Shown: positions 43,113 through 64,000 of the stretch, in pieces
Layout of the letters: each line of letters starts with the position of its first letter
Numbering within the stretch: position 1 is the first letter of the stretch
The notes under the pieces: model-generated
The model's input: the letters and a program-made list of their open reading frames with translations, nothing else
Databases searched by the model: none
What the model was told of the DNA's origin: nothing
Program-made: the position numbers and the translations under genes
Source of the DNA: Perkinsus marinus ATCC 50983
Lineage: Eukaryota; Perkinsozoa; Perkinsida; Perkinsidae
Assembly: GCF_000006405.1 (NCBI RefSeq)
Contig: NW_003200472.1
Location: forward strand, 47,162-111,161
Length of the DNA: 64,000 nucleotides
Direction of reading: 5' to 3'

Positions 43113-44366
43113 CTACCATACGCTCCCAACATGAATTGATAGCAGCAACTCCAAGATATCAGTTACACGCGAGAAGTGGTAACATCCTGCGTGTACTCCA
43201 AGGCCGGTGCAGTACTCGATCGCCGTGTCGAGGTCAGCAAAGGATAGTCCGTTCCAAAATCGGACACATGGGATCGAGCAGAGTAGAATGGTATATCCCC
43301 CCCACGTAGAGCCGCGAGACCGTGATCGGGAGACCAGAGGATGACCCGATTGCACGGTCGACTCCCACCATGGTGATAAACACTTATTTGCAATAAGCAT
43401 ATCAAAATAATATTCATTCGTTACCATATCTTTCATCACTATGTGAACAGGTTGTGGCCCGATGATGCGACACAGGCTGGTGCCAGATGCCCCCAAGACC
43501 TTCCGAATATCCCAAGTGGCGAAAACACAGTACATTGAATAGTAACAGAATGTGTAAACCTTGCCAGGAGTGAAGACATGATCCAACGGCACCTTACCGA
43601 GAAGGTCTGACCTCTGGCAGATGTCCGGAAGTTCAGGATCATCAGGCTCATTATAAAGAATGGTGTCTGCACAGTAGACAGGGAAAAGGAAATGAAACTT
43701 GTCTTGTGGAATTCCATTGCGATCAGAAGCAGGAGTACACTCTCCATCGTAATTACAATCGAGGGGATAGCCTTTAATCCCGCTTATATGTGTAGCGACC
43801 GAGAGCATGATACGTACCACAATTCTCGCCGCTAAGCCAAACTCAGGTAAGTCATAATCGACTTCAGCACCAAACTGGACAGTAGGAGCTCCTATCTCCT
43901 GAAAGACCTCAACAATAACGACTCCATGGATAAGGACAGAGCTCAACGACTACTCACATAACATTGCAGAGACGTCACTGACCTAAGACCCGATATTGGA
44001 GAAGCGAGCAGAATTCCGCGATGCTCGCGGTGCTCAACAACGAGAGTATTCCGGTACGTCCCACCTTGCCGTTGTTTCGGAGCCAAATACGCCTCGTACG
44101 GCGATGGCATGCTCTCGTCGACCGTTTTGTGCATCACAACCGCACTGCCAACGAAAAGACTCTTATCGGACACCGACAGAGGTTCATTTGCTTTGTGCAA
44201 GTCGTAGACTCCAAAGTAGTTGTCCAAGGAATCTGGGGGGACCATCTGTAGCCGCTATACCGACAGGGAGTTGTACGTTGGGCTGCGGGGAGATATTATA
44301 CACAGAGTTGAAGGACAGTGAACTACACACTGCTAGTAATAGTACCAATTTATGTCGTGTATACAC
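43113..44366 (-). CDS. Putative secreted protein, unknown family
   Basis: The minus strand encodes a hydrophobic leader (HKLVLLLAVCSSLSFNS). A 58-bp GT-AG intron can join it to MVPPDSLDNYFGVYDLHKAN, and further exons read EFGLAARIVVRIMLSVATH, CNYDGECTPASDRNGIPQ and TPGKVYTFCYYSMYC. Cysteines are frequent, which fits an extracytoplasmic protein. The leader frame opens upstream but has no ATG; the nearest in-frame start-like codon is GTG at 44,366, so the true first exon is unknown. The 5' end of this gene, with its leader, is duplicated in reverse at about 58.2-58.4 kb. The boundaries of the middle exons are approximate, and I cannot offer a function. Confidence 0.5.
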
Positions 44367-44625
44367 ACAAGGCTTGACCCTAAACGCTTGCTTTGGGTAA
44401 ATTCCATTGATATCCGTATGGTCATTAACCCAAAATCCCTTGTTTACACGAGAGTGAGCAGTAGGGGTTCAGAGCCATGGATTCGTGTGCGTAGTTCAGC
44501 GGATCACGAACCCTATTCGAGTCGTCAGCCTAATGTGTCAGACAGACGCCAAGAAGGAGGAACAGTGGGTAGAGAGGGCAAAGTTGAAAATGTAAGAAAT
44601 GAAACACTCCGCTCCGTCTGAACTA

Positions 44626-44629
44626 AGAG
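44626..44629. repeat. Target-site duplication AGAG (left)
   Basis: AGAG directly precedes the 5' LTR and is repeated directly after the 3' LTR at 50,954-50,957. The unoccupied inverted copy at about 57.98 kb has the motif only once. Confidence 0.9.
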
Positions 44630-44882
44630 TGTGAGCAGTTCTGATTATCGCTCGCCCATTAATCATCTGCTCAGCGCAGTTCTGATTATCGCTCGCCCAT
44701 TAATCATTTTGCTCAGTAACGGTAAGATACACTCCAGTAGTTGCTACGATAAACACAAAAAACTAAGATTCGGTAATTATTTGCTCTATGTCTACCGGAT
44801 TGAGTCTAGTGGATTCGGGGAATCGTCGACCTCAACGATCTTGCGTCGGTCTTGGTGTGGAGCGCTTTGCTGACTCTTCACA
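44630..44882 (+). repeat. 5' LTR, 253 bp
   Basis: It starts TGTGAGCAG and ends CTCTTCACA, so the ends form the short inverted repeat TGTGA/TCACA. By eye it is identical over its full length to the 3' LTR at 50,701. A 41-bp segment (CAGTTCTGATTATCGCTCGC onward) is repeated twice near the start. The start codon of the gag-pol ORF lies inside it, at 44,788. Confidence 0.95.
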
Positions 44883-47800: not shown

Positions 47801-50394
47801 ATATTGGCATTCCTTGGTGTGACGACAGGCATCGTCCTGCGTGGAACTATCATCGCGCCTATGCACGTGACAGAGCTATTTTTTCGAGACTCACGACAGA
47901 GCAACAAGGACTCTACCGTCAGGCCGTAACTGACCTGGTCACCGCGGGGTTCGCTGAAGTGGTCGAGAATCCAGAGCAGTGTGGATACTACATCAACGGC
48001 TTACCTGTGTTTCGGCCCGATAAGGCCACGCATCGCTGTCGTGTGTGCTTGGATGCTCGTGAGCTCAACCGGTACATTGCCAACATATCTACCAAGGGAG
48101 TGGGTCCGGGAAGTTTGTGGTTCTTCTTGATAGCTGTCCGCAACTGTGGATTCTTCCGTGCTGCCGATCTCCAAACTGCCTTTTTACGGGTCGGAATCCA
48201 AGATTCTGATAGCTTTTTCATAGGATGTGTAGCAGCATCTGTGACCATTCGTTTCCGCCGACTCCCGTTCGGCCTATCGTGTAGCGGATTCGGACTCGAA
48301 TCTGTCTTACAAGATCTGCAGTTGCGATGGAGTCGACAGCTAGCGCCCCGACACTCGCCTTCCAACGGTCTGTACCCTACCACCGACGGTAGTCTCGTCA
48401 AGCCCGGTACCCGTCCTCTCGATGCCCCACCTGAGGCCGTTCCGCTCTGCTCCGTCCCCAAAGTTCTGGTCGACAAAGGGTTGGATTTGGTCATCTACGT
48501 CGACGACCTTGTGAACCGCGGAGAATGTCCAGCCGACGTCCACAATCGGTCTCTCTTTTGCTACTCCAAACTCGACGATGCGGGAATGCCTGTCCACGAG
48601 GTTAAAACCTTCGACAACATGCATCCAGCTCCGTCCCATGATCCCACCAACATCAAGGGCTTGCTCGGCTATCGATATGATCCTGGATCGGATTCTCTGT
48701 CACTCACGGTTAAACTCGAGCCTACCTACAGCCCGGAGACATGCACTAGACGTCTACTGGTTGGTGCGGTCAATTCCTTCTATGATCCTCTGAACCTGTT
48801 CATGGAGTTCGCCGCAGTTGGGAGAGGTCTTGCTCGCCTGGCTTCCCAACCCACGGATACCAAAAGTCCTTCGTGGGATGCTCCCCTGGACAACATTCTC
48901 GTCAAGAACCTTAACCAGTGGATCTCTTACATCCCTCGGGAATTCTGGATCCCTCGGTTCGCGGGTCTACATGATGGTTTGTATGCTTTCTCGGACGCAA
49001 GCTATGATGGGTTCTGCTGTGATATTCGCATGGGCAAGTTCCCCTTCACTAGGATTGGTGGGAGGTTTGGCCTGTTCTCCTTGGAGTGCGTTCACAAACA
49101 CTCCATCGTACAAAAAGAACTGTCCGGTCTTTACTGCACTATCACACTCCTGGAGCGCCTACTTGATGTGGCCACAGCCCATGGTCCTCTGCCACCTTCG
49201 TGCGATATCTTTACGGACTCCCTCATAGCCGTCCATCGACTCAGGTCTACTGCCAACGACAATAAGTTGGGTATTTTCGAGCGTCGACGTCTTCGCCGTG
49301 TTCGTGAGTTTGTTACCCGAGCTCAAAAGCTGGGTATCGTTACTCACGTAAGGCATATCGCCGGTGCTTACAATCCGTCAGATCCCTGTACTCGCCCCTT
49401 CCGTGAACCGGTCGAGCTGACGCCCTTGCCGCCAGACCAAATCAGCATCGGGGTGTCGTCATCACTCACTTCAGATCTCACTTATCCTCGACAGCTCCCC
49501 TCGAGGCCGGCCGAGAATGATGGTGACGATCTAGATCCCGATCCGTTCCCTCTGATCGACTATTCCGACAGCGAGGCCAGTTGTGAGCTCAATTTGGTGA
49601 CCATAGTGTCCAGCCCCGAAACTGATGTTGGTTTCGTCTCCGTTGAAGAGCTTCAGGCCGATCAGAGTTCCTGCTCATCCATACGAACTATCAAGGAGAA
49701 GCTGTCTACAAAGACTGAAGACCCAACACGTCAACGTCTCTCCAACTGGTATCGCATCGGTGTCAATGGCCTATTGGTACGCATTCTGAGTGCCAAGATC
49801 AGTGATGAGGATTCCCCTGTGGTCGAGAGGATCGAGCAGGTCTTGGTTGGATCTGAACCGTTAAAGCACAAGTTGGTCGAGAAGGCGCATGACGCGTTTC
49901 ATCGTGGCGAGGGTGGTACTCTGCGACTGTTATGCTCTCGATACTTCTGGAAACGCATGCGTGCTTACGTCAGGCGCTATGTTAACCGCTGCGATGCCTG
50001 TGCCAAAGCTAAAGGAGACAGGATTGCCAGATGTTCACTCGGCTCGGTTCCGTGGTGTGGGGGCGTTGGGCCTCTCCGTGTTGTTATGATCGACTATAGT
50101 GGACCATATGAGAATGGACAAGATCCATCCTACGATCGCTACGCTGTCACTATCGTTTGCGTCGCCACACGATATTGTCGAGGTGTCACTGTCCCTGATA
50201 AGAGCTGTGCTACACTTCTCCTCAAGCTTGCGGCCCTCTTCGACTCTACTGATTGGCCTTCCTTGATATTGGCTAGCGACTCGACGTTCCGAGGACACCA
50301 ATGGACCCATTTCTGCGCCTCTAACAACGTTATCTTTAAGGAGCTCCCTGCCAACGCACCTTTCCTGTTAGGATCTGGTGAGCAGTTTAGATGA
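44788..50394 (+). CDS. Gag-Pol polyprotein of the LTR element
   Basis: A single ORF of 1,868 residues runs from an ATG inside the 5' LTR. Residues 1-350 are Ser/Pro/His-rich with a basic run (RRRHRKRFSRS). A helical gag-like part follows (WVAIIKRTMKGYPDAAVYLW). Two classical CX2CX4HX4C zinc knuckles lie at about 698-711 and 746-759. The aspartic protease has LLDTGAE at about 818. The RT has CRVCLDARELNRY, FFRAADLQTAFLR, LPFGLS and the catalytic YVDD at 1237-1240. RNase H carries FSDAS near 1400 and IFTDS near 1473. Integrase has an HHCC finger (AHDAFHRG ... CDACAKAK) near 1700-1742 and the core aspartates in VMIDYSG and LASDST, with E in GSGEQ. It stops three residues after that, so the integrase C-terminal part is missing or in another frame. 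All catalytic residues I could check are intact. Confidence 0.93.
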   Translation: MSTGLSLVDSGNRRPQRSCVGLGVERFADSSHSTGIHQALSTGDHNTAAPYADHPNNPANGSPRFVDDGTASSQDDDVSAFQSSHRDATSSPSRRGDAMSMPSLCEDGNHHRSSPSDESLFISPPPPDTWVPPPDAMRETIHANGSDLHLRQPLSQSIPHRSYVDVGEVGSASANHSVQTPAEHFAKLASFYPPFAMPDLNSYGYQQPVYHVGLPVPSHLTSGSMMTYPPTPSFGIGHQQQHRPQPPQPSSSLLGLNRSSSNTPPWDVPAANLVRPTTAGKPHAEVRKRSPHHPSRRRHRKRFSRSPSSSLSDSGSSISRTLSSASVSSSGSESERFGRDRRHYKRPRSIGKSDHQRRVGHGKWCGACHGSKCRQKISLSDLNTLHNIARKRKGADKFLGHKDRRSGATWVAIIKRTMKGYPDAAVYLWAELNCDDSVWRDITAGRKAPTMCHADYSDHLTSLYRRVNTLYNNEEVRLRAEDQLHNLQQTANEDVASLLDRAETIRVELVNLGSEPSDRDMKRKIFDALHSERLRDRIDDYLTDHRVSLRRFTRKLLEQDSRQRHRDHRHAASRSGPSAQLNVANASYTVSSGTTASAPLPNGSTTPPSLPGGTTTSSFLSGNATAPTLAIRTGSEHATTLPQHAVPTLSAGQFQPSRKGPGSTAQYLDPSALRPSIPAGSSSVDPKQFTIEFVRRFRCQRCLAHDHSTSKCGTEKMFMSQVRCDKCGLYHDVAPNPVLHCAKAICHRCSTPGHLCRACPSPKPQRGQPREQLQSSTAQVNCVSEESTATSSLIAIGLKISMNDDSRSATVLCPGLLDTGAEAFFLRSDELSSWRAAGLQFPILPDDTKVKVANGASVSTLGRTPPLRVTFVTGTTILASFLVLEDLTHRIILPTTALRQAGGARWVIGETPSEDRLFIGGGHVQQHFVPLAASGSTTCLRMVLARDSPSPTHKRSVKFSVLQDESENLCHSADPIDHDVSSTEGRHFLPVSYRPDPSAPAGRPYIGIPWCDDRHRPAWNYHRAYARDRAIFSRLTTEQQGLYRQAVTDLVTAGFAEVVENPEQCGYYINGLPVFRPDKATHRCRVCLDARELNRYIANISTKGVGPGSLWFFLIAVRNCGFFRAADLQTAFLRVGIQDSDSFFIGCVAASVTIRFRRLPFGLSCSGFGLESVLQDLQLRWSRQLAPRHSPSNGLYPTTDGSLVKPGTRPLDAPPEAVPLCSVPKVLVDKGLDLVIYVDDLVNRGECPADVHNRSLFCYSKLDDAGMPVHEVKTFDNMHPAPSHDPTNIKGLLGYRYDPGSDSLSLTVKLEPTYSPETCTRRLLVGAVNSFYDPLNLFMEFAAVGRGLARLASQPTDTKSPSWDAPLDNILVKNLNQWISYIPREFWIPRFAGLHDGLYAFSDASYDGFCCDIRMGKFPFTRIGGRFGLFSLECVHKHSIVQKELSGLYCTITLLERLLDVATAHGPLPPSCDIFTDSLIAVHRLRSTANDNKLGIFERRRLRRVREFVTRAQKLGIVTHVRHIAGAYNPSDPCTRPFREPVELTPLPPDQISIGVSSSLTSDLTYPRQLPSRPAENDGDDLDPDPFPLIDYSDSEASCELNLVTIVSSPETDVGFVSVEELQADQSSCSSIRTIKEKLSTKTEDPTRQRLSNWYRIGVNGLLVRILSAKISDEDSPVVERIEQVLVGSEPLKHKLVEKAHDAFHRGEGGTLRLLCSRYFWKRMRAYVRRYVNRCDACAKAKGDRIARCSLGSVPWCGGVGPLRVVMIDYSGPYENGQDPSYDRYAVTIVCVATRYCRGVTVPDKSCATLLLKLAALFDSTDWPSLILASDSTFRGHQWTHFCASNNVIFKELPANAPFLLGSGEQFR

Positions 50395-50700
50395 GGAAAT
50401 ACCCATCATCGTCATCGCTCCCTACTGTCGAAGGTCCGATGGTCTACCCGTGCGCAATGGCGAAGAGTACTTGGCTAATGATTCCTATCTCGACCACACT
50501 TCACCGACAGTAATTGACCTACGCTCTTCTCTAACGGTGGTACGTCGGATCACTAGGGCTACCCTGAGGATGATTGCAGCTGAAGGTGATCATGATGATT
50601 GATCGTTTACTATCTCAAGAGTTTGCTGACATCTTCTATCTTCCTTCTGCAATATCGTATATAGTAGCTCGTTAATTCACCTTGTCGCTGGGCCCCCCAG
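50395..50700 (+). other. 3' internal region of the LTR element
   Basis: Between the gag-pol stop and the 3' LTR lies an open stretch in another frame (about 50,396-50,602) rich in charged residues (RSSLTVVRRITRATLRMIAA). It could be the detached integrase tail after a frameshift or deletion. The rest is untranslated. Confidence 0.5.
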
Positions 50701-50953
50701 TGTGAGCAGTTCTGATTATCGCTCGCCCATTAATCATCTGCTCAGCGCAGTTCTGATTATCGCTCGCCCATTAATCATTTTGCTCAGTAACGGTAAGATA
50801 CACTCCAGTAGTTGCTACGATAAACACAAAAAACTAAGATTCGGTAATTATTTGCTCTATGTCTACCGGATTGAGTCTAGTGGATTCGGGGAATCGTCGA
50901 CCTCAACGATCTTGCGTCGGTCTTGGTGTGGAGCGCTTTGCTGACTCTTCACA
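50701..50953 (+). repeat. 3' LTR, 253 bp
   Basis: It is the same length as the 5' LTR and, by eye, identical in sequence, with the same TGTGA/TCACA ends. It is followed by the AGAG target duplication at 50,954-50,957. Confidence 0.95.
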
Positions 50954-51109: not shown

Positions 51110-52398
51110 GTCATTCCTAAATACGATCGATATGTCGAGATCGTTAGCAGCGGCGTGGAAGATTTCAAAGCATGGTTAGTACAGTATTATTGTACTTTGT
51201 CCCTCTCTGCTTTCAGGTATGCAACTCTGCATATGCTCTGTCCGACTGGAGAGACTGAAGATGACTCGTCCATCACAGATGATAGTCAAGATGCTTCATC
51301 TGACAATTATGACGCCTCCTCTCCTGAGCTGCAAGCCAAAGCACGCAGAGCTATGATGAAGGTTCTCCTGGTATGGTACTGCATTATGTAGAAACTCGTT
51401 TATTCAGTCGGTCAGCCCCGCGTCTGAGGACTCGCCTTCTCGTGGCTCGGAAGAACGCCAGGTTGCGCAGGTAACCATCGTTAGCTTCGGTATCTTCCAT
51501 CAGGCATCCTAATGTCTCAAGGTTAATGCTCTGAAGCAGATCGTCTCTAGCCAAGGAAGGCTAATCGATGCTCTTCGGCGTGACAGGTGAGGTGGATCGT
51601 GACCATTATTTTGTACTCCATCGATCTCAGGGATCGCATGCAGATTCTAGAGATGCAAAATCGGGATCTCGTTCGTGTCCTGAAAGGTATGACGTGACTT
51701 CGTGAGGAAGGTTGACTCGTTCTCCCTGCTGCAGAGCGTGAGATCAGCTTGGATGAACTAATGGGAGTCTGCCAGCGCCTGATGGACCAGCAAGGGAAGT
51801 GGGTGAACATCCACCTTGTACGGAACACGGCCGTGCTGAAGCCGTCTAAGCCTGCTTCGGCCAGCCGAGATCCTTTCGCACTGCCTGCAGTGCCTCATGT
51901 ATCGGAGTCTGAGAAGAACGAATATAAGGTTGGTACTACATGTCGGTGAGGAGTAGTGCGTGGTTGTCGTAGCGACCTGTCTTCGCCCCCAAGCCACGCA
52001 AAGCGTCCATGGGCGAGGATAGTGGAAGCGATGATGACTCTTCTGGAGTGGATGTCGCAGATCTCGAGTAGGTCGAGTACTTTTTGTCATGCTTCTATCT
52101 CGTCTTCTGCAGCAATAGCGAGTTGGATGTTCTCGTGTCGTATTTGGACGATAAGCTGATGCTGTTGAAGAGAATAGGAAAGGAGATTGGTAGCATAACT
52201 GGCTCTACGCCTCGCCGAAAGACACTTTTTCGGCTTTCTGTCACAGACGCCGGCTCCCCGAAAGATGAGGATTCCGATGAGGAGGATGCCAGAGTCGACG
52301 CTACACTTGAGAATGTTGTTGCCGAGGAAGCCGAGATTACCAAGCTTCAGGATGAGTTGCATTCGCTCCAGAAGGAGAAAGTCGCTGTGAGAAGCTGA
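51110..52398 (+). CDS. Coiled-coil protein of unknown function, eight or more exons
   Basis: Exons join cleanly across GT-AG introns of 42, 46, 51, 44, 48, 44 and 45 bp. The reading is VIPKYDRYVEIVSSGVEDFK, HMLCPTGETEDDSSITDD, SPASEDSPSRGSEERQVAQ, then a coiled coil (NALKQIVSSQGRLIDALRR, MQILEMQNRDLVRVLKERE). LDELMGVCQRLMDQQGKWVN follows, then a Ser/Asp-rich linker and a second coiled coil (LDVLVSYLDDKLMLLKRIGK, EEAEITKLQDELHSLQKE). It ends in TGA at 52,396-52,398. The 5' end is not found: no ATG lies in the first frame, and the exon begins only about 120 bp after the LTR-target region. A first exon may lie further left or have been altered by the rearrangements. The last exon and intron are duplicated in reverse at 62.5-62.9 kb. 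Confidence 0.7.
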
Positions 52399-52608
52399 GC
52401 TTCGGAGTCTGATTGAGTGGCGCTCCCGTTAGCGTGTGTTGGACAGCACTGCTCTGAGCAATATGGTGAGAGGCCACGAGTAACCGGTGACAAGCAGATA
52501 TGCGTACAAGCTCCTGTAACTATCGAGTATCCTCTTGGTAGAGAGTGAAACATGATTTAATCATTATCAGTCCTGCCATCACATGTCTCCGAGCTGGACA
52601 ACGGAATT

Positions 52609-53385
52609 GTGTTACAAGTCATTTGCAAATTATCTAATCTGGACCGAGTACACAAGGTCGATTGTTTTCTTCATTCGAGTGGTAGTAGGAACGTGAGAGT
52701 GGCCCCGATGCATGCAGCTTCCGATGTCCCCACATCAGGAGCCGGAAATTTCGAATGCAATACACCATACAGACTCAATTTACCCGTAGGATTGCCTGCC
52801 TAAGTGGCCAATGCAACGCGCTTCGCCTAACGAATTTCCGCCTTTCTGACAAAAAAGTTTTGTGCGGGGTTGTGATTCGTGACTTCGACCAGCCCCGCGA
52901 TCGTTCACGTTATTGGTCACTAGGCACTCATTCTGCCTCCTGCCCTGCTCACTTGTGGTATCGTCGCTGGTGAGGCTTCAGCCTAATGAACCGTTGGGAA
53001 GAAGTCGAAGTTCCTGTGGGTCGCTAGTCCGGAGATGCCGGGACTCGTGCATCATCAACAAATTCAGTGGCGATATCAATCTTCATGAACTACGTGACGA
53101 AAACAGAGCACACAATCAACGGACGGAAGTATATCATTCATACTTGTGGTGGTACACTCTATCTTCTCCGCTGAATTCACATGTAAACCTGGCCATCAGC
53201 CCTCGCTAGATGCTCTCCTGCACAACAGGCTTCAACCTCACAACACTACATGTTCTGCCGGACAGATCTCTAAGCACCCCCTACTTGTGTGCATCGGCCA
53301 CTTGGGCGTAGCAATGTCCTCGAAATCGCGCGTAGTCCTGCCAGGAACGGATATTATTTTTGCTATTAATGTGCCTCTACTTTGA
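52609..53385 (+). CDS. Uncertain gene, conserved ORFs in both C copies
   Basis: Protein-like stretches on the plus strand read HSSGSRNVRVAPMHAASDVP, VVIRDFDQPRDRSRYWSLG, NYVTKTEHTINGRKYIIHT and EFTCKPGHQPSLDALLHNR, with the last open to 53,385. The copy at 61,506-62,298 keeps these stretches open but differs by a 2-bp indel near 52,932, so at least one copy is disabled or the indel lies in an intron. Cysteines and a lack of long helices suggest a secreted protein, but no leader was found. I cannot build one continuous model. Confidence 0.35.
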
Positions 53386-53616
53386 TGCACGGGTGTGACT
53401 TCCTTACTCTCTAGGTCCTGGCTCAATTATAATGCGTCGGTTTTCGTGGTCATATAGGATTATGCCCCGTTGAGTGTGTCCATACCCTGCATCTATCAAA
53501 CTCAGCTTTAAAATCGATTCTGCTGTGTAGTACGATCAGGCTCAGCTCCATCGAGAAGCTTATTTCTCTCCAAGGACTTACAGCGCTTCCCCTCAGTTCC
53601 CAAACTTGTCTGCCCG

Positions 53617-53868
53617 ATGTTCGGACGCATCCTTACCCTGGTTATCGCTCTCTTTGTTCTGGTGGCTGCCGAAGACGTACCCCGTCCCACCACCACCACG
53701 ACGACGACCACGGCCACCCACGCGCGCAGTTGGAAGGCCATATGCCCTGCTCAGTGCGATCCCTGTAACTGCAGATGCTATGGGCCGCATAAGCCATGTC
53801 CTAGGCCACATTGTCCACTGGCGTGCAGCTTGTGTAATACGTTATGTAAGTGCTGCAAGAAAGAGTAG
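53617..53868 (+). CDS. Small secreted cysteine-rich peptide
   Basis: The ATG at 53,617 encodes an 83-residue precursor without introns. The signal peptide is MFGRILTLVIALFVLVAA. A short Pro/Thr linker with eight consecutive threonines follows, then a cysteine-dense mature region with 12 cysteines in about 42 residues: CPAQCDPCNCRC, then CPRPHC, CSLCNTLCKCC and a Lys/Glu end. The stop is TAG at 53,866-53,868. The framework C-x3-C-x2-C-x-C-x-C is shared with the paralogue at 61,069-61,287 on the opposite arm, but most other mature residues differ. Disulfide-rich secreted peptides of this kind may be structural, antimicrobial or host-directed; sequence alone does not decide, and no toxin family is recognised. 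Confidence 0.8.
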   Translation: MFGRILTLVIALFVLVAAEDVPRPTTTTTTTTATHARSWKAICPAQCDPCNCRCYGPHKPCPRPHCPLACSLCNTLCKCCKKE

Positions 53869-54116
53869 ATCGTGACCAACTCTTCCAAGTTGATAAGAAG
53901 TTGTATTTGCTCACCACAAGCAGCAGCGGTTCTTCTTTTCTTGACCCCTACAGTAAGGCGTTCCGAAGCCTATCGACGCTGAGCCAATCTGAGTGCACCA
54001 GTTTGAGCCCGGCATTTCGACTTATTATTTCAAGTGCGGGGAGTTTAGTATGGCTCTCTTGCACCATTCATTTCCCATTACGATTTTATCATCCCAATAG
54101 ATTGAGGGTTTCATGC

Positions 54117-54476
54117 TCAGACTCGACAGGGCTCTGAGTTTCGTGAGTAAATTTTTGTCTGGATATTAACACACTGGATTAGCTGCGACTCCGTTGTCGT
54201 ATATCGAAAAGTACACAGGAAGGCTTTCTGAGAAAGCCTTCCTGTGTATTCAACAGATCTGATAGTAATGTCAAAGACATCTCGAATGGAGTCCAAAGCA
54301 CATCGAATCGTCCAAATATCTATGAAGGAGGTCCCCTTAGCAACCGACTCAGCGGTTCCCCGAGTCCTCAATTCGCATGCTTCTTCTTGCTGATTGTCAC
54401 TTTGTATGTGATATTGGCTCTTGAGGGCATCACTGTCGGTGTCGGTATTTCCAGAGGCAACAAACCCTCCTCGCAT
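54117..54476 (-). CDS. Unknown ORF of 119 residues, disrupted in the other copies
   Basis: The ATG at 54,476 opens MRGGFVASGNTDTDSDALKS and continues through IDIWTIRCALDSIRDVFDIT to a stop at 54,117. In both inverted copies (60,481 and 63,403) the same ORF carries a one-base insertion after about 42 codons and stops early. Here the middle is altered by a perfect palindrome at 54,213-54,247, which adds residues. It is either a fading gene or an ORF in noncoding DNA. An upstream minus-strand stretch (SLQCIVPVFEMIMNSTRGLL, near 54,600) could be another exon. Confidence 0.3.
   Translation of the reverse strand: MRGGFVASGNTDTDSDALKSQYHIQSDNQQEEACELRTRGTAESVAKGTSFIDIWTIRCALDSIRDVFDITIRSVEYTGRLSQKAFLCTFRYTTTESQLIQCVNIQTKIYSRNSEPCRV
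54213..54247. repeat. Perfect 35-bp palindrome (17-bp arms, 1-bp loop)
   Basis: ACACAGGAAGGCTTTCT is followed by one G and then its exact reverse complement. Both inverted copies of the segment have a shorter, non-palindromic sequence here. Confidence 0.92.
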
Positions 54477-54895
54477 TGCCTTGCGTTCCAGAGGTAACGC
54501 GATTTGAGCGCATAAGTCTCAACTCAGCATTCTGTCATATCAATCTCAAAGGCCCGAGAACGGTTCCTCTGAGAGGAGTCCTCTCGTACTATTCATTATC
54601 ATCTCAAACACCGGTACAATGCACTGGAGACTCGAACTCAATGCAGCAGAGATACCATTGGGATCATCCCAACACAATCTTAACAACAATATAGCAAGCG
54701 AATTAACTATCTCTCCACTTCGGTGAGTAACTTCTTAACTTCCTTCAACTCATCCTTCAACCACTGCCTTCACTCATCATGGCACTTGCCCTCGTCCAAC
54801 TCAGTTCCGCTCTACTCTATCGATGGATGGATACTGCTCTAACTCCAGCTCCGATGCAGCCCGATCGGTCTTATCGTCGGCTACTGACAGCATAG

Positions 54896-55215
54896 GAAAC
54901 AGCACCTGAGCAATACAATCGCATATATCATGATGATAACAACAGAGGATATACTCGTGGAGTGCCATATTTCGAGCATCTGTCTAGTAGGGCCTGCAGC
55001 AGCCAGTGGTATCGTGTGATCCGGCTCGTTTTCACGGAGAGGAGGCTGTCACCTTTTGAATTTCAGGGCGGACCCAATTTCCCGGGCTCAAGCACAAATT
55101 GCGCAGCATCCAGCTGCCTCAGCTTGAAGATGCCAATCTGGCTACGTATAGTGGATACTTCGAGGCTATGCTGTCCCTGTGGAAGGCAATTCAGCGCCTT
55201 GTGAGTGATGCCTAG
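54896..55215 (+). CDS. Unknown 3' exons ending segment C
   Basis: After an AG acceptor at 54,895 the frame reads ETAPEQYNRIYHDDNNRGYT and PYFEHLSSRACSSQWYRVIR. A second stretch reads FPGLKHKLRSIQLPQLEDAN and GYFEAMLSLWKAIQRLVSDA to TAG at 55,213-55,215. The inverted copy (59,717-59,995) keeps most of this but has a TGA in place of TGG near the end and a 28-bp insertion. The opposite strand is also open over part of the region, so the strand is not fully certain. No family is recognised. Confidence 0.35.
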
Positions 55216-55268
55216 CGAAAGTCACCATTCACAGAACACCGAGGTCGATTCCGGGTGATGCAGACCTC

Positions 55269-55640
55269 GTGCGTGAGACATTCGGCAGGCTCGTTTATCA
55301 TCCCTCAACGAGAGTTTTCACTCCCAAAAAGACTCTGCTTTTCACTCCACCAATAACATCTTGCGCAAGGTTTGTGATAAGCATCCTTGGGCCCAGAATG
55401 TCATCGTCGACTAATTCGTGTTTTCTGATGAAGTTTGGTCCATGGATGAACTCCCCAGTCGTAAGGATTCGTCTATACCTCACCATGAAGAGCTCCATGA
55501 ACTGTGATAAACGCGACAATTAGACGTGCTATGGTGTCAACAGACAACAGCATGCGCTTAGTAACTTCTGGCATCTGTATGGTGACACATGCGCCTCGGT
55601 CGTATGTATCCATCGATTAGAGAGTGCAACTCCTCTTCAC
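55269..55640. other. Region between segment C and the coiled-coil gene
   Basis: Open frames exist on both strands (for instance 55,298-55,519 minus), but none shows splice continuity with neighbours. No feature is supported. Confidence 0.35.
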
Positions 55641-55649
55641 CATAGAGGG

Positions 55650-56400
55650 GTCCTCGATCACCTCGCCGCTATTCCGAACCAATTTCTTCCTCCAGCTCAT
55701 CTACCATATGCTCCATGGCGATGATTTGCTGATGCAGCATGGTCTTCTCAGCTGTCGGAGAAACCAATGCAGAAAAACTTCGTGCAATCACGAGGGCCGT
55801 GATAACCAACTCACTCTTCAAAGTAGTGAGGCATTGCTGTAGACGAATGTTCTCATTCTTCTGAACGCCCACCTGAACATGCCGACCATATTGCGCAGGA
55901 TCGCATAACCTGTAGGCCCTAGTTGCATAGTAGATAGCACGGACGAGTATCGCTAATCGAGTGAGAGAAACAGCGGAACTCCAGACTCATTTCGTACTGA
56001 GTGAGCATGTGAGAGTGAATTCACCTTGGCTTTGAAGTCCTCCTCCATCTGCTGTAGCTCAACTTGGAAGAATCTGAGTGCGGCCTCCGACGCCGAGCTT
56101 GATTCCCGGAATACAGTACTTTTGGGTATTCTCTAGCTCTTTATTGAGGCCGTGATTAGAAGATGCGGCCGTCGACTTCACGTGATCGATGCGGGTTCGA
56201 TCCTCGCCTAGGGCATCCGTTTGATTCTGAGAAAAGACTCCATGCCTCGCAGTCAGCATGAAACACGCGAGCCTTGATGTTTAACGCTCGATTGCTTCCC
56301 AAGATTAGGTCGAGTCGAGCGAGCGGTCATACCTGTAGGGTCCTAGCGACATTTTGAACCCGTAGTTTGAGACCGCTAGCAGTGGAGGATAACCCACCCG
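55650..56400 (-). CDS. Coiled-coil protein of unknown function
   Basis: Minus-strand exons read SGLKLRVQNVARTLQ, NQTDALGEDRTRIDHVKSTA and HGLNKELENTQ, then across a 46-bp GT-AG intron FFQVELQQMEEDFKAK, and later ENIRLQQCLTTLKSELVITA and IAMEHMVDELEEEIG. Heptad-like spacing and the charge pattern indicate a coiled coil. The start and stop are not located; the coordinates cover the supportable exons only. It may be functionally related to the coiled-coil gene at 51.1-52.4 kb, but there is no sequence similarity that I can see. Confidence 0.5.
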
Positions 56401-56403
56401 CCG

Positions 56404-56994
56404 ATGGTGAACGAGCGAGCCCTATGGTATTCGCAGACGAATTCTTCATGCAGCAGATCAAAGGACCCTAACTATCTGGTAACCATCATATTCATAAACT
56501 CCACACGCCTATCCGATGAGAATGCTTTATCGAACCAGAACGGAAAGGACCCAAAGAGCGGGTGGGTTCTCCTCTCCCTCGCTCTAGTCTATATCATTGA
56601 CCACAACAGTGACGAGAATGAGAATCCAATGAACCTACTCGTGCCCGCCAACGGTGCAACTACGACTCCTCTGAAATCGTCTACTCAATCGCCTGAATGA
56701 ATGCGCAATGAGAGTCAGGACCCGGAAGCATGTGCTTCCGTGTATGGTAACCCGAGATCCCCGCGATTCTGTTGGCAACTTTCAGCCACGTCTCTCACCG
56801 CGTACCCTCCTTTTGCCGAGAGTGGCCTAACAGTAACCTCAGATCAGACAGTGACGGTCATCATTGACAACACTATAACGGGTTTTCAGTCAGAAACCTA
56901 TGTGTCCCTGTATTGTGAGGATTACGGCATTCCTTCGTCGAGGAAGCTCGGGTGTACATCAGAGTTTTGGAGCGAGACTATATTTGGTCGGTGA
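56404..56994 (+). other. Open frame with one in-frame TGA
   Basis: A frame of 197 codons is open from ATG 56,404 to 56,994 except for one TGA at 56,698-56,700, followed at once by ATG. The first part has a hydrophobic segment (WVLLSLALVYIID), the second reads SLTAYPPFAESGLTVTSDQT. The coiled-coil gene on the other strand may extend into this area. Gene status is undecided. Confidence 0.25.
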
Positions 56995-57108
56995 GAAGTA
57001 ACTTCCGTAGAAACCGGGCATTCCCCGATGGGGACGATAGTCGTCTGAGGAACAGCGCCGAATATATCACATCACATAGTCACCTTGAACGGTGCGAGCC
57101 TACACGAC

Positions 57109-57823
57109 TCAGTATTCCATGCTTTTCTTAGTGCTCTTCTTAGGAAGTAGGCTAGTGTGAATATTTGGCAGTACGCCACCAGAGGCAATCGTGACGTTAC
57201 TCAGGAATCTGAGGATTCATGGCTCTTCCTAGCCGATATAGGAAAACCATCATTCAACTTACTCATTGAGCTCTTCATCGTTCCTGACTGCTAGTTGTAT
57301 ATGCCGAGGGTTGATCCTGCTCTTTTTATGGTCGCGTGCAGCGTTACCAGCTAACTCCAATATTTCAGCAACCAAATACTCCAGCACAGCAGCCATGTAC
57401 ACAGGAGCACCGGCGCCTACAAGCAAGGAATTTGTGAACAACAAAGCGGACCAGATGGATTCACGCCTGGAAAATTAATGGAACTCGCCTGTAATTACCA
57501 ACACGCTTGGCGTATCTGCCATGCTTCATGTAACGGGCGATTCGGCCAACGGGGAACTGCAGACCCGCCTTAGCGGACCGAGTCTTCTTATCTGGGAGAC
57601 ACAGGGTTCGTGAGTCCTCCCCTCGAGAAGAGCTCTACAAGAATCATAACTATGCTCAAGTAGAAGCGGATATATTCTAGAATTCCATACAAGTATGAGT
57701 AATGCCCTCATTCGTACGGTCTGACGATGTACATTCGATGGTCGTGAGAGGATCCTGACCTTCCGTATTACTACTACCCTTGGACATTCCTTCATGCACA
57801 GCTCCCTTGCCTTTACCAGACAT
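57109..57823 (-). CDS. H2A: Histone H2A
   Basis: H2A is a core nucleosome histone. The ATG at 57,823 gives [18 protein letters not shown]. After an intron the exon near 57,560-57,510 reads [20 protein letters not shown] and [11 protein letters not shown]. The next exon reads [40 protein letters not shown] and [12 protein letters not shown] 58-bp intron leads to [20 protein letters not shown] and [10 protein letters not shown], with TGA at 57,111-57,109. [13 protein letters not shown] and LLPKK mark the canonical H2A, not H2A.Z. There is no SQ-type H2A.X tail. A histone gene with introns implies polyadenylated, not only replication-dependent, expression. Normal histones also argue against a core dinoflagellate. 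Confidence 0.92.
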
Positions 57824-57945
57824 GTTCAGAAACTATCTATTGAATAAAACTAGCAACTGAAACGGACATCGATTCTATTGAATTGGCGGCCAAAACGATC
57901 GTTTGCTCGGAGCCTCCCCCATGACTAGTCGAAGATAGAGTTATA

Positions 57946-59343
57946 CTGGATGGGAATTTTAATTCGTGGGCGAGCGCTCTGATCTCAGACGGAGCGGAGT
58001 GTTTCATCTCTTACATTTTCAATTTTGCCCTCTCTGCCCACGGTTCCTTCTTGGCGTCTCTCTGACACATTAGGCTGACGACTTGAATAGGGTTCATGAT
58101 CCGCTGAACTCCGCACACGAATCCATGGCTCGGAAGCCCTACTGCTCACTCTCGTGTAAACAAGGGATTTTGGGTTAATGACCATACGGATATCAATGGA
58201 ATTTACCCAAAGCAAGCGTTTAGGGTCAAGCCTTGTGCGTATACACGACATAAATTAGTACTATTACTAGCAGTGAGTAGTTCACTGTCCTTCAACTCTG
58301 TGTATAATATCTCCCCGCAGCCCAACGTACAACTCCCTGTCGATATAGCGGCTACAGATGGTCCCCCCCAGATTCCTTGGACAACTACTTTGGAGTCTAC
58401 GACTGGTTGGTCCTCAGCCGATTGGATGAGACTGTCAATTACCAGGAGCATTCAACCAATCGTGGTTGGAGGCTCATCTATCGTGGTAATGTCGATCCTC
58501 AGGAGCCTCTTCTCTGGCACGGTGCTGAATTCACGCTAAAAGGGTCACAAGGACGAGTTGAAGGGCAGAAGAAGATCTTCGTGCGCCTGGCAAGTCTACA
58601 AGGGAACCTCAGCATTGGCTTAACTGAGTGTGATGATCCATGCTGCGTGTGTCGACGGAAGTATCCTGGAGCTAAACAAGGCAAAAAAAGTTGTCGGAAA
58701 TCTGTTGGATTCAACAGTGACGGTGTGAAGTGGAATCGCGGAAAGCCCGTCCAGATGAAGGCATATCAGATCTGCCAAGGAGATCTGCTAGCGTTGATAC
58801 TCGTCTCTGCCGGCTCTGACAAGTTCGCCAGAGTTGAAATCGGAGTCAGTCAAAATCAATCCTCGATGACGATTCTGCCGGTGAAGCTAGAGTCTGACAG
58901 TCCGGGTGGAGGCCGGCTTGTGATCAGAGCTAGTGGGAGCGCGACTATCGATCTGTTGCTTGGAGATGGCCCAAGTCGCACACTGGGACAGGGTGTTCCG
59001 TTGTGGCAGGCGCTCCCGTGAAGTGAAGTGAAGGAAGAGCCCGAGTCCGAAGCCGACTGTGACATGCCTGATGCATGATGTCCGCTCCGTTATGTCTTCC
59101 ATGATTGATTTGACTTGAAATATTTGAATCTGACCGCACAGATTTCTGAGTGCAGATATGTCTGGGATCGCGACTGGTAGCCAGGATGGTATCAGTCGCG
59201 TTCAACGACAACTTTGTAGGTTCTCGATCGTTTTAATCTCTACTCAATGCCTTCGAGTTGGGCGCTTCTCAGTCAAAAACAACTAATCTGGATGGATCTT
59301 CAGAATGACGAGCACGTACAGGACGGTCTCTCAGGCGTATAAT
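57946..59343. repeat. Segment A', inverted and internally deleted copy of A
   Basis: Read on the minus strand, it matches 50,988-50,954, then 44,629-44,202, then jumps at about 58,404 to 40,993-40,063. Missing are the LTR element and 3.2 kb of A. Near 57,974-57,985 the empty insertion site with a single AGAG is present. Confidence 0.88.
58240..59080 (+). pseudogene. Chimeric pseudogene: leader gene 5' end fused to 3' half of the 40.3-kb gene
   Basis: The leader sequence of the 44-kb secreted gene (LVLLLAVSSSLSFNS) is present. After DNYFGVYD it changes, at about 58,404, to LVLSRLDETV and the exon 2 sequence of the 40.3-kb gene. The fusion itself is in frame for these parts, but a C run is seven long instead of six, which breaks the frame from the leader. 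A TGAAG repeat near 59,021 adds an early stop after LWQALP. No ATG precedes the fused frame. It is very probably non-functional. Confidence 0.7.
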
Positions 59344-59345
59344 CA

Positions 59346-59510
59346 TGACTGGTGCTGCGAACTGAGATTTCCACCGTGATATAATCCGGAGATATGAACG
59401 CTGCATCGATTTGCAGCGCCTCCTATATAATCCGTGAGCTTGTTCAGTGTATCTTCGACTTCACGGACGTATTTCGTGGGCACCATCCCATCAATCTCAG
59501 ATGTCATGTC
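59346..59510 (-). CDS. Isolated exon-like ORF between A' and C'
   Basis: A minus-strand ATG opens MTSEIDGMVPTKYVREVEDT and LNKLTDYIGGAANRCS, ending in TGA near 59,346. It is short and has no clear splice partners. It could be a gene remnant at the junction of the two duplicated segments. Confidence 0.25.
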
Positions 59511-59716
59511 TAAGATGTGAGCTCGGCAATCGGTTGATGCAATTGCACAGCCTTTCCGACTCTCAACTTTGGATCATCAATGATTCATCATCTTCCAGCG
59601 ACGCCACTAGGAGACTGAACTGCTTCTGCATTCCTCGACGCACATCGTGGGGTCAACTGCCTTTACGCAGTTGTTGATTTTGATACTAGGACTTACTCTT
59701 CGAGATAATCAAGACG

Positions 59717-59995
59717 AGCATCATTCACAAAGCGCTGAACAGCCTTTCACAGGGACAGTATAGCCTCGAAGCACCCAATATCCGTAGCCAGATTGGCGTC
59801 TCCAAGCTGAGGCAGCTGGATGCTGCGCAATTTGTGCTTGAGCTCGGGAAATTGGGTCCGCCCTGAAACCCTCGAGAACACTGTCAGCCGAGCAAATTCA
59901 AAAGGTGACAGCCTCCTCCCCGTTAAAACGAGCCGGATCACACGATACCATTGGCTGCTGCAGGCCCTACTAGACAGATGCTCGAAATATGGCAC
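59717..59995 (-). pseudogene. Copy of the 54.9-55.2 kb ORF with a premature stop
   Basis: It is read on the minus strand, from PYFEHLSSRACSSQWYRV to SIQLPQLGDANLAT and FEAILSL, then TGA where segment C has TGG. A 28-bp segment absent from C lies in the middle. The two copies have diverged as non-selected DNA would. Confidence 0.45.
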
Positions 59996-60480
59996 TCCAC
60001 GAGTATATCCTCTGTTGTTATCATCATGATATATGCGATTGTATTGCTCAGGTGCTGTTTCCTATGCTGTCAGTAGCCGACGATGAGACCGATCGAGCTG
60101 CATCGGAGCTGGAGCTAGAGCAGTATCCATCCATCGATAGAGTAGAGCGGAACTGAGTTGGACGAGGGCAAGTGCCATGATGAGTGAAGGCAGTGGTTGA
60201 AGGATGAGTTAAAGGAAGTTAAGAAGTTACTCACCGAAGTGGAGAGATAGTTAATTCGCTTGCTATATTGTTGTTAAGATTGTGTTGGGATGATCCCAAT
60301 GGTATCTCTGCTGCATTGAGTTTGAGTCTTCAGTGCATTGTACCGGTGTTTGAGATGATAATGAATAGTACGAGAGGACTCTTCTCAGAGGAACCGTTCT
60401 CGGGCCTCTGAGATTGATATGACAGAATGCTGAGTTAAGACTTATGCGCTCAAATCGCGTTACCTCTGGAACGCAAGGCA

Positions 60481-60955
60481 ATGCGAGGAGGGTTTGTTGC
60501 CTCTGGAAATACCGACACCGACAGTGATGCCCTCAAGAGCCAATATCACATACAAAGTGACAATCAGCAGAAAGAAGCATGCGAATTGAGGACTCGGGGA
60601 TACCGCTGAGTCGGTTGCTAAGGAGACCTCCTTCATAGATATTTGGACGATTCGATGTGCTTTGGACTCCAATCGAGATGTCTTTGACATTACTATCAGA
60701 ATCAGATCTGGTGAATACACAGAAAGTCTCTTTCGATATACGACAACAGAGTTGCAGTGTGTTGATATCCAGAGAAAACTCAAAGCCCTGTCGAGTCTGA
60801 GGAGGAAGCCCTCAATCTATTGCAATGACCATATCCTTATGCCAAATAAATGGTGCAAGCGGAACCAGTCTCAACTTCCCGCACTAAAAATAATAAGTCA
60901 AGATGCCGAGCTCAAACTGGTGTACTCAGATTGGCTAAGCGTCGTTAGGCTTTAA
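60481..60955 (+). pseudogene. Frameshifted copy of the 54.1-54.5 kb ORF
   Basis: It begins MRGGFVASGNTDTDSDALKS like its counterpart. An extra T (GGGATACC versus GGGAACC) causes a stop after about 42 codons. The rest continues in another frame as DSNRDVFDITIRI and onward. Confidence 0.4.
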
Positions 60956-61068
60956 AATACCTTACTGTAGGGGTCAAGAAAAGAAGGACCGCTGCTGCTT
61001 GTGGTGGGCAAATACAACTTCTCATTCACTCATGGAGCCTTGGTTGCGATCTGCTTGGTTACTAGTTT

Positions 61069-61287
61069 TCAGCACACACACAAGTTAAAACACTCCAGAG
61101 CACAACCCGGTATAAACCATTTACAGAGTGGCAGAGTGGGTGGCACCCCATCATATTCAACACAAAAACATTTACAGGTCTTGCACGTATCAGGGCATAT
61201 GGCATCCCAAACGTTGATGATGTCTTCGACGGCATTAACCACCAGAACAAAGAGAGCGATAACCAGGATAAGGATGCGTCCGAACAT
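61069..61287 (-). CDS. Small secreted cysteine-rich peptide, diverged paralogue
   Basis: The ATG at 61,287 encodes a 72-residue precursor. The signal peptide MFGRILILVIALFVLV differs from the 53.6-kb copy by one residue. The mature part is very different: no threonine run, CPDTCKTCKCFC, a long loop with no cysteine, then CKWFIPGC, CFNLCVC and TGA at 61,071-61,069. It has ten cysteines, not twelve. The same C-x3-C-x2-C-x-C-x-C opening shows common descent. The non-coding flanks of the two copies match closely for hundreds of bases, while the mature-peptide DNA hardly aligns. That contrast suggests selection for change or replacement of a cassette. Confidence 0.8.
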   Translation of the reverse strand: MFGRILILVIALFVLVVNAVEDIINVWDAICPDTCKTCKCFCVEYDGVPPTLPLCKWFIPGCALECFNLCVC

Positions 61288-61505
61288 CGAGCAGACAAGT
61301 TTGGGAACTGAGGGGAAGCGCTGTAAGTCCTGCGAGAGATATAAGCTTCTCGATGGAACTGAGCCTGATCGTACTATACAGCAGAATCGATTTTAAAGCT
61401 GAGTTTGATAGAGGCAGGGTATGGACACACTCAACGGGGCATAATCTTATATGACCACGAAAACCGACGCATTATAATCGAGCCAGGACCTAGAGAGTAA
61501 GGAAG

Positions 61506-62298
61506 TCACACCCGTGCATCAAAGTAGAGGCACATCACATTAATAGCGAATAAATTATCCGTTCCTGGCAGGACTACGCGCGATTTTAAGGACATTGCTA
61601 CGCCCAAGTGGCCGATGCGCACAAGTAGGGGGTGCTTAGAGATCTGTCCGGCAGAACATGTAGTGTTGTGAGGTTGAAGCCTGTTGTGCAAGAGAGCATC
61701 TAGCGAGGGCTGATGGCCAGGTTTACATGTGAATTCAGCGGCGAAGATAGAGTGTACCACCACAAGTATGAATGATATACTTCCGTCCGTTGATTGTGTG
61801 CTCTGTTTTCGTCACGTAGTTCATGAAGATTGATATCGCCACTGAATTTGTTGATGATGCACGAGCCCCGGCATCTACGGACTAGCGACCCACAGGAACT
61901 TCGACTTCTTCCCAACGGTTCATTAGGCTGAAGCCTCACGAGCGACGATACCACAAGTGAGCAGGACAGGAGGCAGAATGTGCCTAGTGACCAATAACGT
62001 GAACGATCGCGGGGCTGGTCGAAGTCACGAATCACAACTCCGCACAAAACTTTTTTGTCAGAAAGGCGGAAATTCGTTAGGCGAAGCGCGTTGCATTGGC
62101 CACTTAGGCAGGCAATCCTACGGGTAAATTGAGTCTGTATGGTGTATTGCATTCGAAATTTCCGGCTCCTGATGTGGGGACATCGGAAGCTGCATGCATC
62201 GGGGCCACTCTCACGTTCCTACTACCACTCGAATGAAGAAAACAATCGACCTTGTGTACTCGGTCCAGATTAGATAATTTGCAAATGACTTGTAACAC
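61506..62298 (-). CDS. Copy of the uncertain 52.6-53.4 kb gene
   Basis: It shares the stretches of its counterpart, with a longer uninterrupted frame (61,700-62,152) owing to the 2-bp indel. Small amino-acid changes are scattered (for example a Cys to Arg before IGHLGVAM). Gene status is as uncertain as for the other copy. Confidence 0.3.
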
Positions 62299-62508
62299 AA
62301 TTCCGTTGTCCAGCTCGGAGACATGTGATGGCAGGACTGATAATGATTAAATCATGTTTCACTCTCTACCAAGAGGATACTCGATAGTTACAGGAGCTTG
62401 TACGCATATCTGCTTGTCACCGGTTACTCGTGGCCTCTCACCATATTGCTCAGAGCAGTGCTGTCCAACACACGCTAACGGGAGCGCCACTCAATCAGAC
62501 TCCGAAGC

Positions 62509-62874
62509 TCAGCTTCTCACAGCGACTTTCTCCTTCTGGAGCGAATGCAACTCATCCTGAAGCTTGGTAATCTCTGCTTCCTCGGCAACAACATTCTCAA
62601 GTGTAGCGTCGACTCTGGCATCCTCCTCATCGGAATCCTCATCTTTCGGGGAGCCGGCGTCTGTGACAGAAAGCCGAAAAAGTGTCTTTCGGCGAGGCGT
62701 TGAGCCAGTTATGCTACCAATCTCCTTTCCTATTCTCTTCAACAGCATCAGCTTATCGTCCAAATACGACACGAGAACATCCAACTCGCTATTGCTGCAG
62801 AGGACGAGATAGAAGCATGACAAAAAGTACTCGACCTACTCGAGATCTGCGACATCCACTCCAGAAGAGTCATG
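62509..62874 (-). pseudogene. 3' fragment of the coiled-coil gene
   Basis: The last exon (SCFYLV-frame to KEKVAVRS, TGA at 62,511-62,509), the 45-bp intron before it and part of the previous exon are present, then the copy breaks off at 62,874. Without the first two-thirds of the gene it cannot make the full protein. The remaining exon is nearly unchanged, so the copying was recent. Confidence 0.7.
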
Positions 62875-63402
62875 GTTTGTTGCAGGCCCTACTAGACAGA
62901 TGCTCGAAATATGGCACTCCACGAGTATATCCTCTGTTGTTATCATCATGATATATGCGATTGTATTGCTGAAGTGCTGTTTCCTATGCTGTCAGTAGCC
63001 GACGATGAGACCGATCGGGCTGCATCGGAGCTGGAGTTAGAGCAGTATCCATCCATCGATAGAGTAGAGCGGAACTGAGTTGGACGAAGGCAAGGGCCAT
63101 GATGAGTGAAGGCAGTGGTTGAAGGATGAGTTGAAGGAAGTTAAGAAGTTACTCACCGAAGTGGAGAGATAGTTAATTCGCTTGCTATATTGTTGTTAAG
63201 ATTGTGATGGGATGACCCCAATGGGATCTCTGCTGCATTGAGTTTGAGTCTTCAGTGCATTGTACCGGTGTTTGAGATGATAATGAATAGTACGAGAGGA
63301 CTCTTCTCAGAGGAACCGTTCTCGGGCCTCTGAGATTGATATGACAGAATGCTGAGTTAAGACTTATGCGCTCAAATCGCGTTACCTCTGGAACGCAAGG
63401 CA

Positions 63403-63877
63403 ATGCGAGGAGGGTTTGTTGCCTCTGGAAATACCGACACCGACAGTGATGCCCTCAAGAGCCAATATCACATACAAAGTGACAATCAGCAGAAAGAAGC
63501 ATGCGAATTGAGGACTCGGGGATACCGCTGAGTCGGTTGCTAAGGAGACCTCCTTCATAGATATTTGGACGATTCGATGTGCTTTGGACTCCAATCGAGA
63601 TGTCTTTGACATTACTATCAGAATCAGATCTGGTGAATACACAGAAAGTCTCTTTCGATATACGACAACAGAGTTGCAGTGTGTTGATATCCAGAGAAAA
63701 CTCAAAGCCCTGTCGAGTCTGAGGAGGAAGCCCTCAATCTATTGCAATGACCATATCCTTATGCCAAATAAATGGTGCAAGCGGAACCAGTCTCAACTTC
63801 CCGCACTAAAAATAATAAGTCAAGATGCCGAGCTCAAACTGGTGTACTCAGATTGGCTAAGCGTCGTTAGGCTTTAA
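63403..63877 (+). pseudogene. Second tandem copy of the frameshifted ORF
   Basis: It repeats 60,481-60,955, including the same extra T, so the frameshift predates the tandem duplication. Confidence 0.4.
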
Positions 63878-63988
63878 ATACCTTACTGTAGGGGTCAAGA
63901 AAAGAAGACCGCTGCTGCTTGTGGTGGGCAAATTACACTTCTCATTCACTCATGGAGCCTTGGTTGCGATCTGCTTGGTTACTAGTTT

Positions 63989-64000
63989 TCAGCACACACA
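63989..64000 (-). CDS. Third cysteine-rich peptide gene, only its last codons in the window
   Basis: The final twelve bases match the end of the 61,069 paralogue: TGA preceded by codons for Cys-Val-Cys. The downstream flank also matches. The rest of the gene lies beyond the right edge. Confidence 0.55.
   Translation of the reverse strand, partial: CVC

What the first reader, a model, noticed from the sequence alone, without database searches (positions are those of the whole stretch)
53617..61287. Cysteine-rich secreted peptide whose mature region is rewritten between near-identical flanks
Seen: copies at 53,617-53,868 and 61,069-61,287 have nearly the same 5' flank, signal peptide and 3' flank, but the mature peptides share little beyond a C-x3-C-x2-C-x-C-x-C start. 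Cysteine number (12 versus 10), loop lengths and a Thr-rich linker differ. Inference: rapid diversifying selection or cassette replacement, as known for conotoxin-like and effector families. Together with the tandem array at the right edge this looks like an amplifying, diversifying secreted-peptide system.
Basis: partly seen in the sequence, partly recalled or inferred. Interest (0 to 1): 0.8.

Follow-up and report, generated by a model that had tools for sequence, protein, structure and literature searches.

The report
Diverged secreted-peptide genes in twin flanks
A Perkinsus-like shellfish-parasite genome carries two neighbouring genes for small, probably secreted cysteine-rich peptides whose surroundings are almost identical but whose peptides differ strongly, best read as old gene copies kept distinct while the DNA around them was copied back and forth.

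Summary
The window is the end of a contig of a 54-Mb Perkinsus-like genome. Copies 1 (53617-53868, +) and 2 (61069-61287, -) sit in the arms of a 3.2-kb inverted repeat. Difference rates along the arms are 1.0%, 4.9%, 44% (53666-53895, the mature part), 15% (53896-54257) and 3.3%. The mature parts are homologous, not unrelated cassettes. One more intact gene, one broken gene (both C243) and one truncated piece (C6) were found. No convincing relative turned up in the libraries searched.

dN/dS gives no sign of positive selection (29 codons: dN 0.41, dS 0.61). In the C243 pair the alignable mature part is the best-conserved segment. Copies 2 and 3 show no excess change in the visible 3' block (3 of 320 sites; a hot spot predicts about 34). 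So general hypervariability is not shown. Best reading: an old divergence island between paralogues whose flanks were homogenised by gene conversion, as described for opsin genes. One-off replacement of a diverged block is the main rival. 'Amplifying array' rests on three copies, the third cut off by the contig end. Secretion, expression and function are inferred.

The parts
52034..55217 (+). Arm 1 of the inverted repeat, holding copy 1
   Evidence: blastn self-comparison, identity profile
59718..62873 (-). Arm 2 of the inverted repeat, holding copy 2
62878..64000 (-). Partial third copy (tandem to arm 2, offset 2922 bases), cut off by the contig end in the last codons of its CDS
53617..53868 (+). 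Copy 1 CDS, 83 aa, 12 Cys after the signal, Thr-rich linker, charge +5 (K+R-D-E)
61069..61287 (-). Copy 2 CDS, 72 aa, 10 Cys after the signal, no Thr linker, charge -4
53617..53664 (+). Signal-like codons 1-16, one nonsynonymous and no synonymous difference between copies
   Evidence: signal function inferred from sequence, no predictor run
53666..53895 (+). Core of the divergence island (difference rate 0.44), mature part plus 27 bases past the stop
53896..54257 (+). 3' shoulder of the island (difference rate 0.15)
53321..53665 (+). 5' shoulder of the island (difference rate 0.049 against 0.010 further out, p 2e-5)
53586..53596 (+). Candidate splice acceptor (pyrimidine run then AG) 20 bases before the ATG of copy 1; same sequence in copy 2 at 61308-61318
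   Evidence: inference
54713..54820 (-). Broken convergent coding fragment, a marker of the duplicated unit (copy 1)
60137..60244 (+). The same fragment beside copy 2
63059..63166 (+). The same fragment beside copy 3

Best explanation
A small family of probably secreted, disulfide-rich peptides in a Perkinsus species spread by segmental duplication of a unit: peptide gene plus a broken convergent exon about 0.83 kb downstream. Copies 1 and 2 are old paralogues in an inverted repeat. Gene conversion between the arms kept the flanks and the signal-encoding part alike, while the mature-peptide block escaped or resisted conversion and so kept old divergence, peaking on the mature codons and falling off on both sides. 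Most likely the two mature peptides are held apart because they do different things (charge +5 against -4, 12 against 10 Cys). Shown: the inverted repeat, the stepped divergence peak, homology of the mature parts, shared unit structure. Inferred: gene conversion as the cause, selection for distinctness, secretion, disulfides, and a target-binding role outside the cell.
For: Stepped peak with shoulders on both sides, 0.010/0.049/0.440/0.150/0.033; 5' shoulder above the outer 5' flank (17 of 346 vs 13 of 1281, p 2e-5) and 3' block above the outer 3' flank (43 of 315 vs 13 of 732, p 1.5e-13). Silent sites in the mature part also look old (6.8 of 16.2), as a conversion-escape peak predicts. Outer 3' flanks of the three copies are about equidistant (0.982, 0.977, 0.986), whereas in the 3' block copies 2 and 3 are 0.991 and copy 1 is 0.863 and 0.856 away. 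In protein score the mature part of copy 1 is closer to C243a (109) than to its own twin (77.5). In 5 of 5 units with a readable downstream side (C47 three times, C6, C243b) the broken fragment lies convergent, roughly 0.82-0.85 kb past the stop by coordinates.
Against: No conversion tract was observed directly, and no orthologue from another species was available to show concerted evolution. dN/dS does not show selection. The 5' edge at 53665/53666 is sharp, which also suits one replacement event. The longer distance between copies 1 and 2 than between copy 1 and C243a could be faster change in copy 2. Mature dS rests on about 16 sites and uncertain alignment. No RNA or protein evidence.
Confidence: 0.5

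Rival explanations
1. One-off replacement: the unit was duplicated recently, then a block of about 0.6 kb (53666-54257) in one copy was overwritten by ectopic conversion from a diverged paralogue.
For: Sharp 5' edge; outer flanks of three copies all about 1-2% apart, as if all were young; related loci exist on C243 and C6.
Against: No donor found: own-genome DNA searches with the copy-1 gene region, the 5' flank and the 3' flank gave only the C47 copies plus the C144 fragment. One block should have one neutral divergence, yet the core is 0.44 and the 3' block 0.15 (p 5e-13), and the 5' shoulder is raised too. The assembly is incomplete at the array, so a donor may be missing.
Confidence: 0.3
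2. One reading: the mature region mutates or is positively selected much faster than its flanks, as in conotoxin-like families.
For: Core 0.44 against 3' block 0.15 (p 5e-13); many inter-cysteine residues differ while 9 of 9 aligned Cys in the anchored modules are kept, 6 of 9 with the same codon.
Against: dN not above dS; non-coding 3' block is raised too; copies 2 and 3 show 3 of 320 differences in that block against about 34 expected for a hot spot (P 2e-11), though the third mature part is not visible; C243a against C243b shows the opposite order.
Confidence: 0.12
3. Assembly artefact: the inverted or tandem copies at the contig end are misjoined or low-quality sequence.
For: The contig ends inside the third copy; several copy-3-only differences lie within 150 bases of the end.
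Against: The two arms differ by 44% in a block that keeps reading frame, motif and homology to a third locus, which a read fold-back cannot make. The third copy alone may be affected.
Confidence: 0.05
4. Function rival: extracellular metal-binding (metallothionein-like) peptide instead of a disulfide-rich one.
For: C-x-C, C-C and C-x2-C pairs; C243a has His next to Cys and no aromatics.
Against: Signal-like N-terminus (secretory route favours disulfides); Cys number even in 3 of 3 intact members; copy 2 has 6 aromatics; no Pfam family.
Confidence: 0.2

Closest known systems
Divergence peak between paralogues under gene conversion (human red/green opsin exon 5; passages of PMC3924837, citing Teshima and Innan 2008)
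   Same: Neighbouring duplicates, low divergence in flanks, a peak over the functional part.
   Different: Here the peak is far higher (44% against a few functional changes), in an inverted repeat, and neither selection nor conversion has been shown independently.
GOT1 paralogues of Tigriopus californicus (PMC3728101, start of abstract seen in a search listing)
   Different: Different gene type and organism; allele data exist there, none here.
Conotoxin superfamilies (PMC3823881, start of abstract seen in a search listing; the look-up in its text failed)
   Same: Conserved signal, variable loops between conserved Cys.
   Different: No dN excess here, no dibasic propeptide site seen in the sequence, family members on C243 conserve the mature part best, tiny family.
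Hyper-variable apoplastic effectors of potato cyst nematodes (PMC4177990, search listing only)
   Same: Secreted peptides described as hyper-variable.
   Different: Different kingdom; only the listing was seen; no sequence relation tested.
Metallothioneins (recalled)
   Same: High Cys content and C-x-C, C-C pairs.
   Different: Signal-like N-terminus, aromatics in two of three members, no family match.

Membership tests
Divergence island under gene conversion | Paralogue pair with near-identical flanks and a localised divergence peak | tested here: met
Divergence island under gene conversion | Divergence decays on both sides of the peak | tested here: met
   0.049 and 0.150 shoulders against 0.010 and 0.018 further out; the 5' edge is sharp
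Divergence island under gene conversion | Flanks more alike within a species than between species (concerted evolution) | not testable with these tools
   No relatives of G000 are held; no orthologous DNA available
Conotoxin-like hypervariable family | Mature region with dN above dS | tested here: not met
   dN/dS 0.437/0.457 (18 codons), 0.407/0.610 (29 codons), 0.733/0.961 (49 codons); few sites
Conotoxin-like hypervariable family | Mature region less conserved than signal and flanks across the family | tested here: not met
   Met for copies 1 and 2, opposite in C243a/C243b (one of that pair is broken, many gap columns)
Conotoxin-like hypervariable family | Codon-level conservation of Cys | tested here: inconclusive
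   6 of 9 aligned Cys codons identical
Metallothionein | Match to a metallothionein profile | tested here: not met
   Pfam: 0, 0 and 1 family (vMSA, E 0.6, 9.5 bits against cut-off 29.1) for copies 1, 2 and C243a; NCBIfam none for 3 of 3
Metallothionein | Metal bound by Cys thiolates | not testable with these tools
   Needs the peptide itself
Secreted disulfide-rich peptide | N-terminal hydrophobic signal and even Cys number after it | tested here: met
   12, 10 and 14 Cys in 3 of 3 intact members; signal judged from sequence, no predictor was run
Secreted disulfide-rich peptide | Solved or predicted fold of a known class | tested here: inconclusive
   AlphaFold2 mean pLDDT 63.7, pTM 0.32 with 2 sequences; no fold search made

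The most novel reading that the evidence does not exclude
The locus is a working diversity generator: an inverted plus tandem array of a fixed secretion cassette in which the mature-peptide block is repeatedly exchanged between copies while conversion keeps promoter, acceptor and signal uniform, so that unassembled array members carry further distinct mature peptides.
Probability: 0.15. Interest if true: 0.75.

Novelty: new member of a known kind. Interest (0 to 1): 0.45.

Why it matters
If true, it gives a Perkinsus-like genome a clean natural test of how a secreted peptide can keep two forms beside each other while the surrounding DNA is homogenised, and points to an uncharacterised secreted peptide family in a genus of shellfish parasites. 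The array beyond the contig end would show directly whether this is a generator of new peptides or only a pair of old ones.

Tried and rejected
Protein relatives: copy 1 alone gave no candidate; the three-sequence alignment gave 19 candidates, none at E <= 1. Own-genome protein searches at E <= 10 found only the C47 copies, C243 and a C343 hit at E 0.70 that I take for chance and did not pursue beyond a motif scan of its 10-kb locus, which found nothing. Solved structures: copy 1 best E 0.47; C243a one hit at E 2.6e-6 to a designed protein (7on8) over its hydrophobic start with 0 stretches passing alone, which I do not count as a relative; copy 2 was not searched there. RNA families: only a tRNA in the window, and none up to E 1 in 53300-55300. 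Structure prediction is low confidence, so no fold search. Paper searches on Perkinsus with cysteine-rich, secreted, secretome or effector terms listed nothing I recognised as this family; only listings and passages were seen. I considered an rRNA-like origin for the 3' flank by eye and dropped it.

Full report
Setting. The window is G000:C47:47162-111161, the right end of a contig in a 54,459,702-base assembly of 347 contigs. The 21-base core of the Perkinsus spliced leader occurs 76 times in the genome with at most one mismatch, 34 of them exact, against 0 for the reversed control. The exact form matches PmaSL1 as printed in PMC3101222 (passages seen). A transporter in the window (25732-26685) has its best named hits in Perkinsus olseni (83%) and P. 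chesapeaki (79%) and a 99% hit from an unnamed source (120 of 568 listed). I take it as a Perkinsus species, which one is not settled.

Observation. They lie in the two arms of an inverted repeat, with a spacer of about 4.5 kb. A change-point script splits the arm alignment into five parts with difference rates 0.010, 0.049, 0.440, 0.150 and 0.033; the last includes the ragged end of the repeat, and over 54258-54989 it is 13 of 732. The core, 53666-53895, starts after codon 16 and ends 27 bases past the stop. The 3' block is non-coding for the peptide and still differs by 15%, so the island is larger than the coding part.

Are the mature parts related? Yes. Local scores are 77.5 (copy 1 with copy 2), 109 (copy 1 with C243a) and 74 (copy 2 with C243a); 0 of 2000 composition shuffles reach any of them, and 17, 13 and 35 of 2000 do when the Cys are held in place. 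All three have the C-P-x2-C-x2-C-x-C-x-C block and a second, looser block; C243a has two nearly equal modules (44 of 54 bases, 15 of 18 residues).

The family. C243 holds one intact gene (79 aa, 14 Cys after the signal) and a broken one about 1.4 kb on; C6 holds a truncated end piece with its 3' region. Beside five of five units with a readable downstream side lies a broken convergent coding fragment, about 0.82-0.85 kb past the stop (C47 three times, C6, C243b); open versions without a peptide gene noticed beside them are on C144 and C343 (C144 was read and scanned; the C343 place was not). So the family spread by segmental duplication of a common unit. Searches here see only the best candidates, so the count is a lower bound.

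Selection. Codon comparison of copies 1 and 2 gives 0 silent and 1 replacement difference in the 16 signal codons, dN 0.437 and dS 0.457 in the gap-free first module (18 codons), 0.407 and 0.610 over both anchored modules (29), 0.733 and 0.961 over the full automatic alignment (49); excess of replacement change is not seen (p 0.90 for 29 codons). Silent divergence is thus high too. That means old sequence, not only fast amino-acid change. The number of sites is small.

Hot spot or one split? In the 3' block copies 2 and 3 differ at 3 of 320 sites, no more than in the outer flank (10 of 733, p 0.77), whereas copies 1 and 2 differ at 43 of 315 against 13 of 732. If the block were a mutation hot spot, about 34 differences would be expected between copies 2 and 3 (P 2e-11). 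The excess therefore belongs to the split between copy 1 and copies 2/3. The mature part of copy 3 is beyond the contig end, so this test covers the 3' block only.

Counter-example within the family. C243a and C243b are most alike in the mature part (81 of 104) and less in signal (37 of 51), upstream (124 of 184) and 3' region (158 of 268), counting ungapped columns only, with 116 gap columns in mature and one gene broken. C243b and C6 agree at 39 of 43 in a short mature piece (ungapped count across an indel) and 458 of 482 in the 3' flank.

Mechanism. Gene conversion between inverted arms, blocked or selected against over the mature block, predicts a peak with shoulders and old silent sites at its centre, which is what is seen. 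PMC3924837 (passages) describes such a peak in opsin genes. A one-off replacement of a diverged homologous block also fits much of it but predicts one neutral divergence inside the block and needs a donor, which was not found.

Function. The peptides begin with a hydrophobic, signal-like stretch and have even Cys numbers after it; copies 1 and 2 differ in charge (+5, -4) and aromatics (2, 6). A candidate splice acceptor 20 bases before the ATG is identical in both copies. I think a secreted disulfide-rich peptide acting on something outside the cell is most likely (about 0.4 for a target-binding role such as host or microbe interaction), metal binding less so (0.2). No expression, secretion or structure evidence exists here; the fold prediction is poor.

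Noticed in passing
44628-50953: Retrotransposon with a 255-base direct repeat pair 100% identical at its ends and a 1868-aa ORF matching Integrase_H2C2 and, at a score just under cut-off, Peptidase_A17 (Pao): a recent insertion.
   Followed up: partly
57977-59343: In the spacer of the inverted repeat: a 95-96% copy of 40063-40994 joined to a copy of 44200-44629; the copy ends where the retrotransposon begins.
   Followed up: no
57259-57444: Short ORF matching the Pfam core histone family (E 3.5e-12) in the spacer of the inverted repeat.
   Followed up: no
39347-39899: Tandem array with a 56-base shift, 99-100% identical copies.
   Followed up: no
own genome, e.g. C39:787 and 7075, C70:333740 and 339414: Spliced-leader sequences often occur as same-strand pairs about 5-6 kb apart, perhaps repeats of mobile elements that carry the leader.
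   Followed up: no
L027 4483-4692 (C144) and C343:44823-44984: Open versions of the coiled-coil-like fragment that marks the peptide units.
   Followed up: partly
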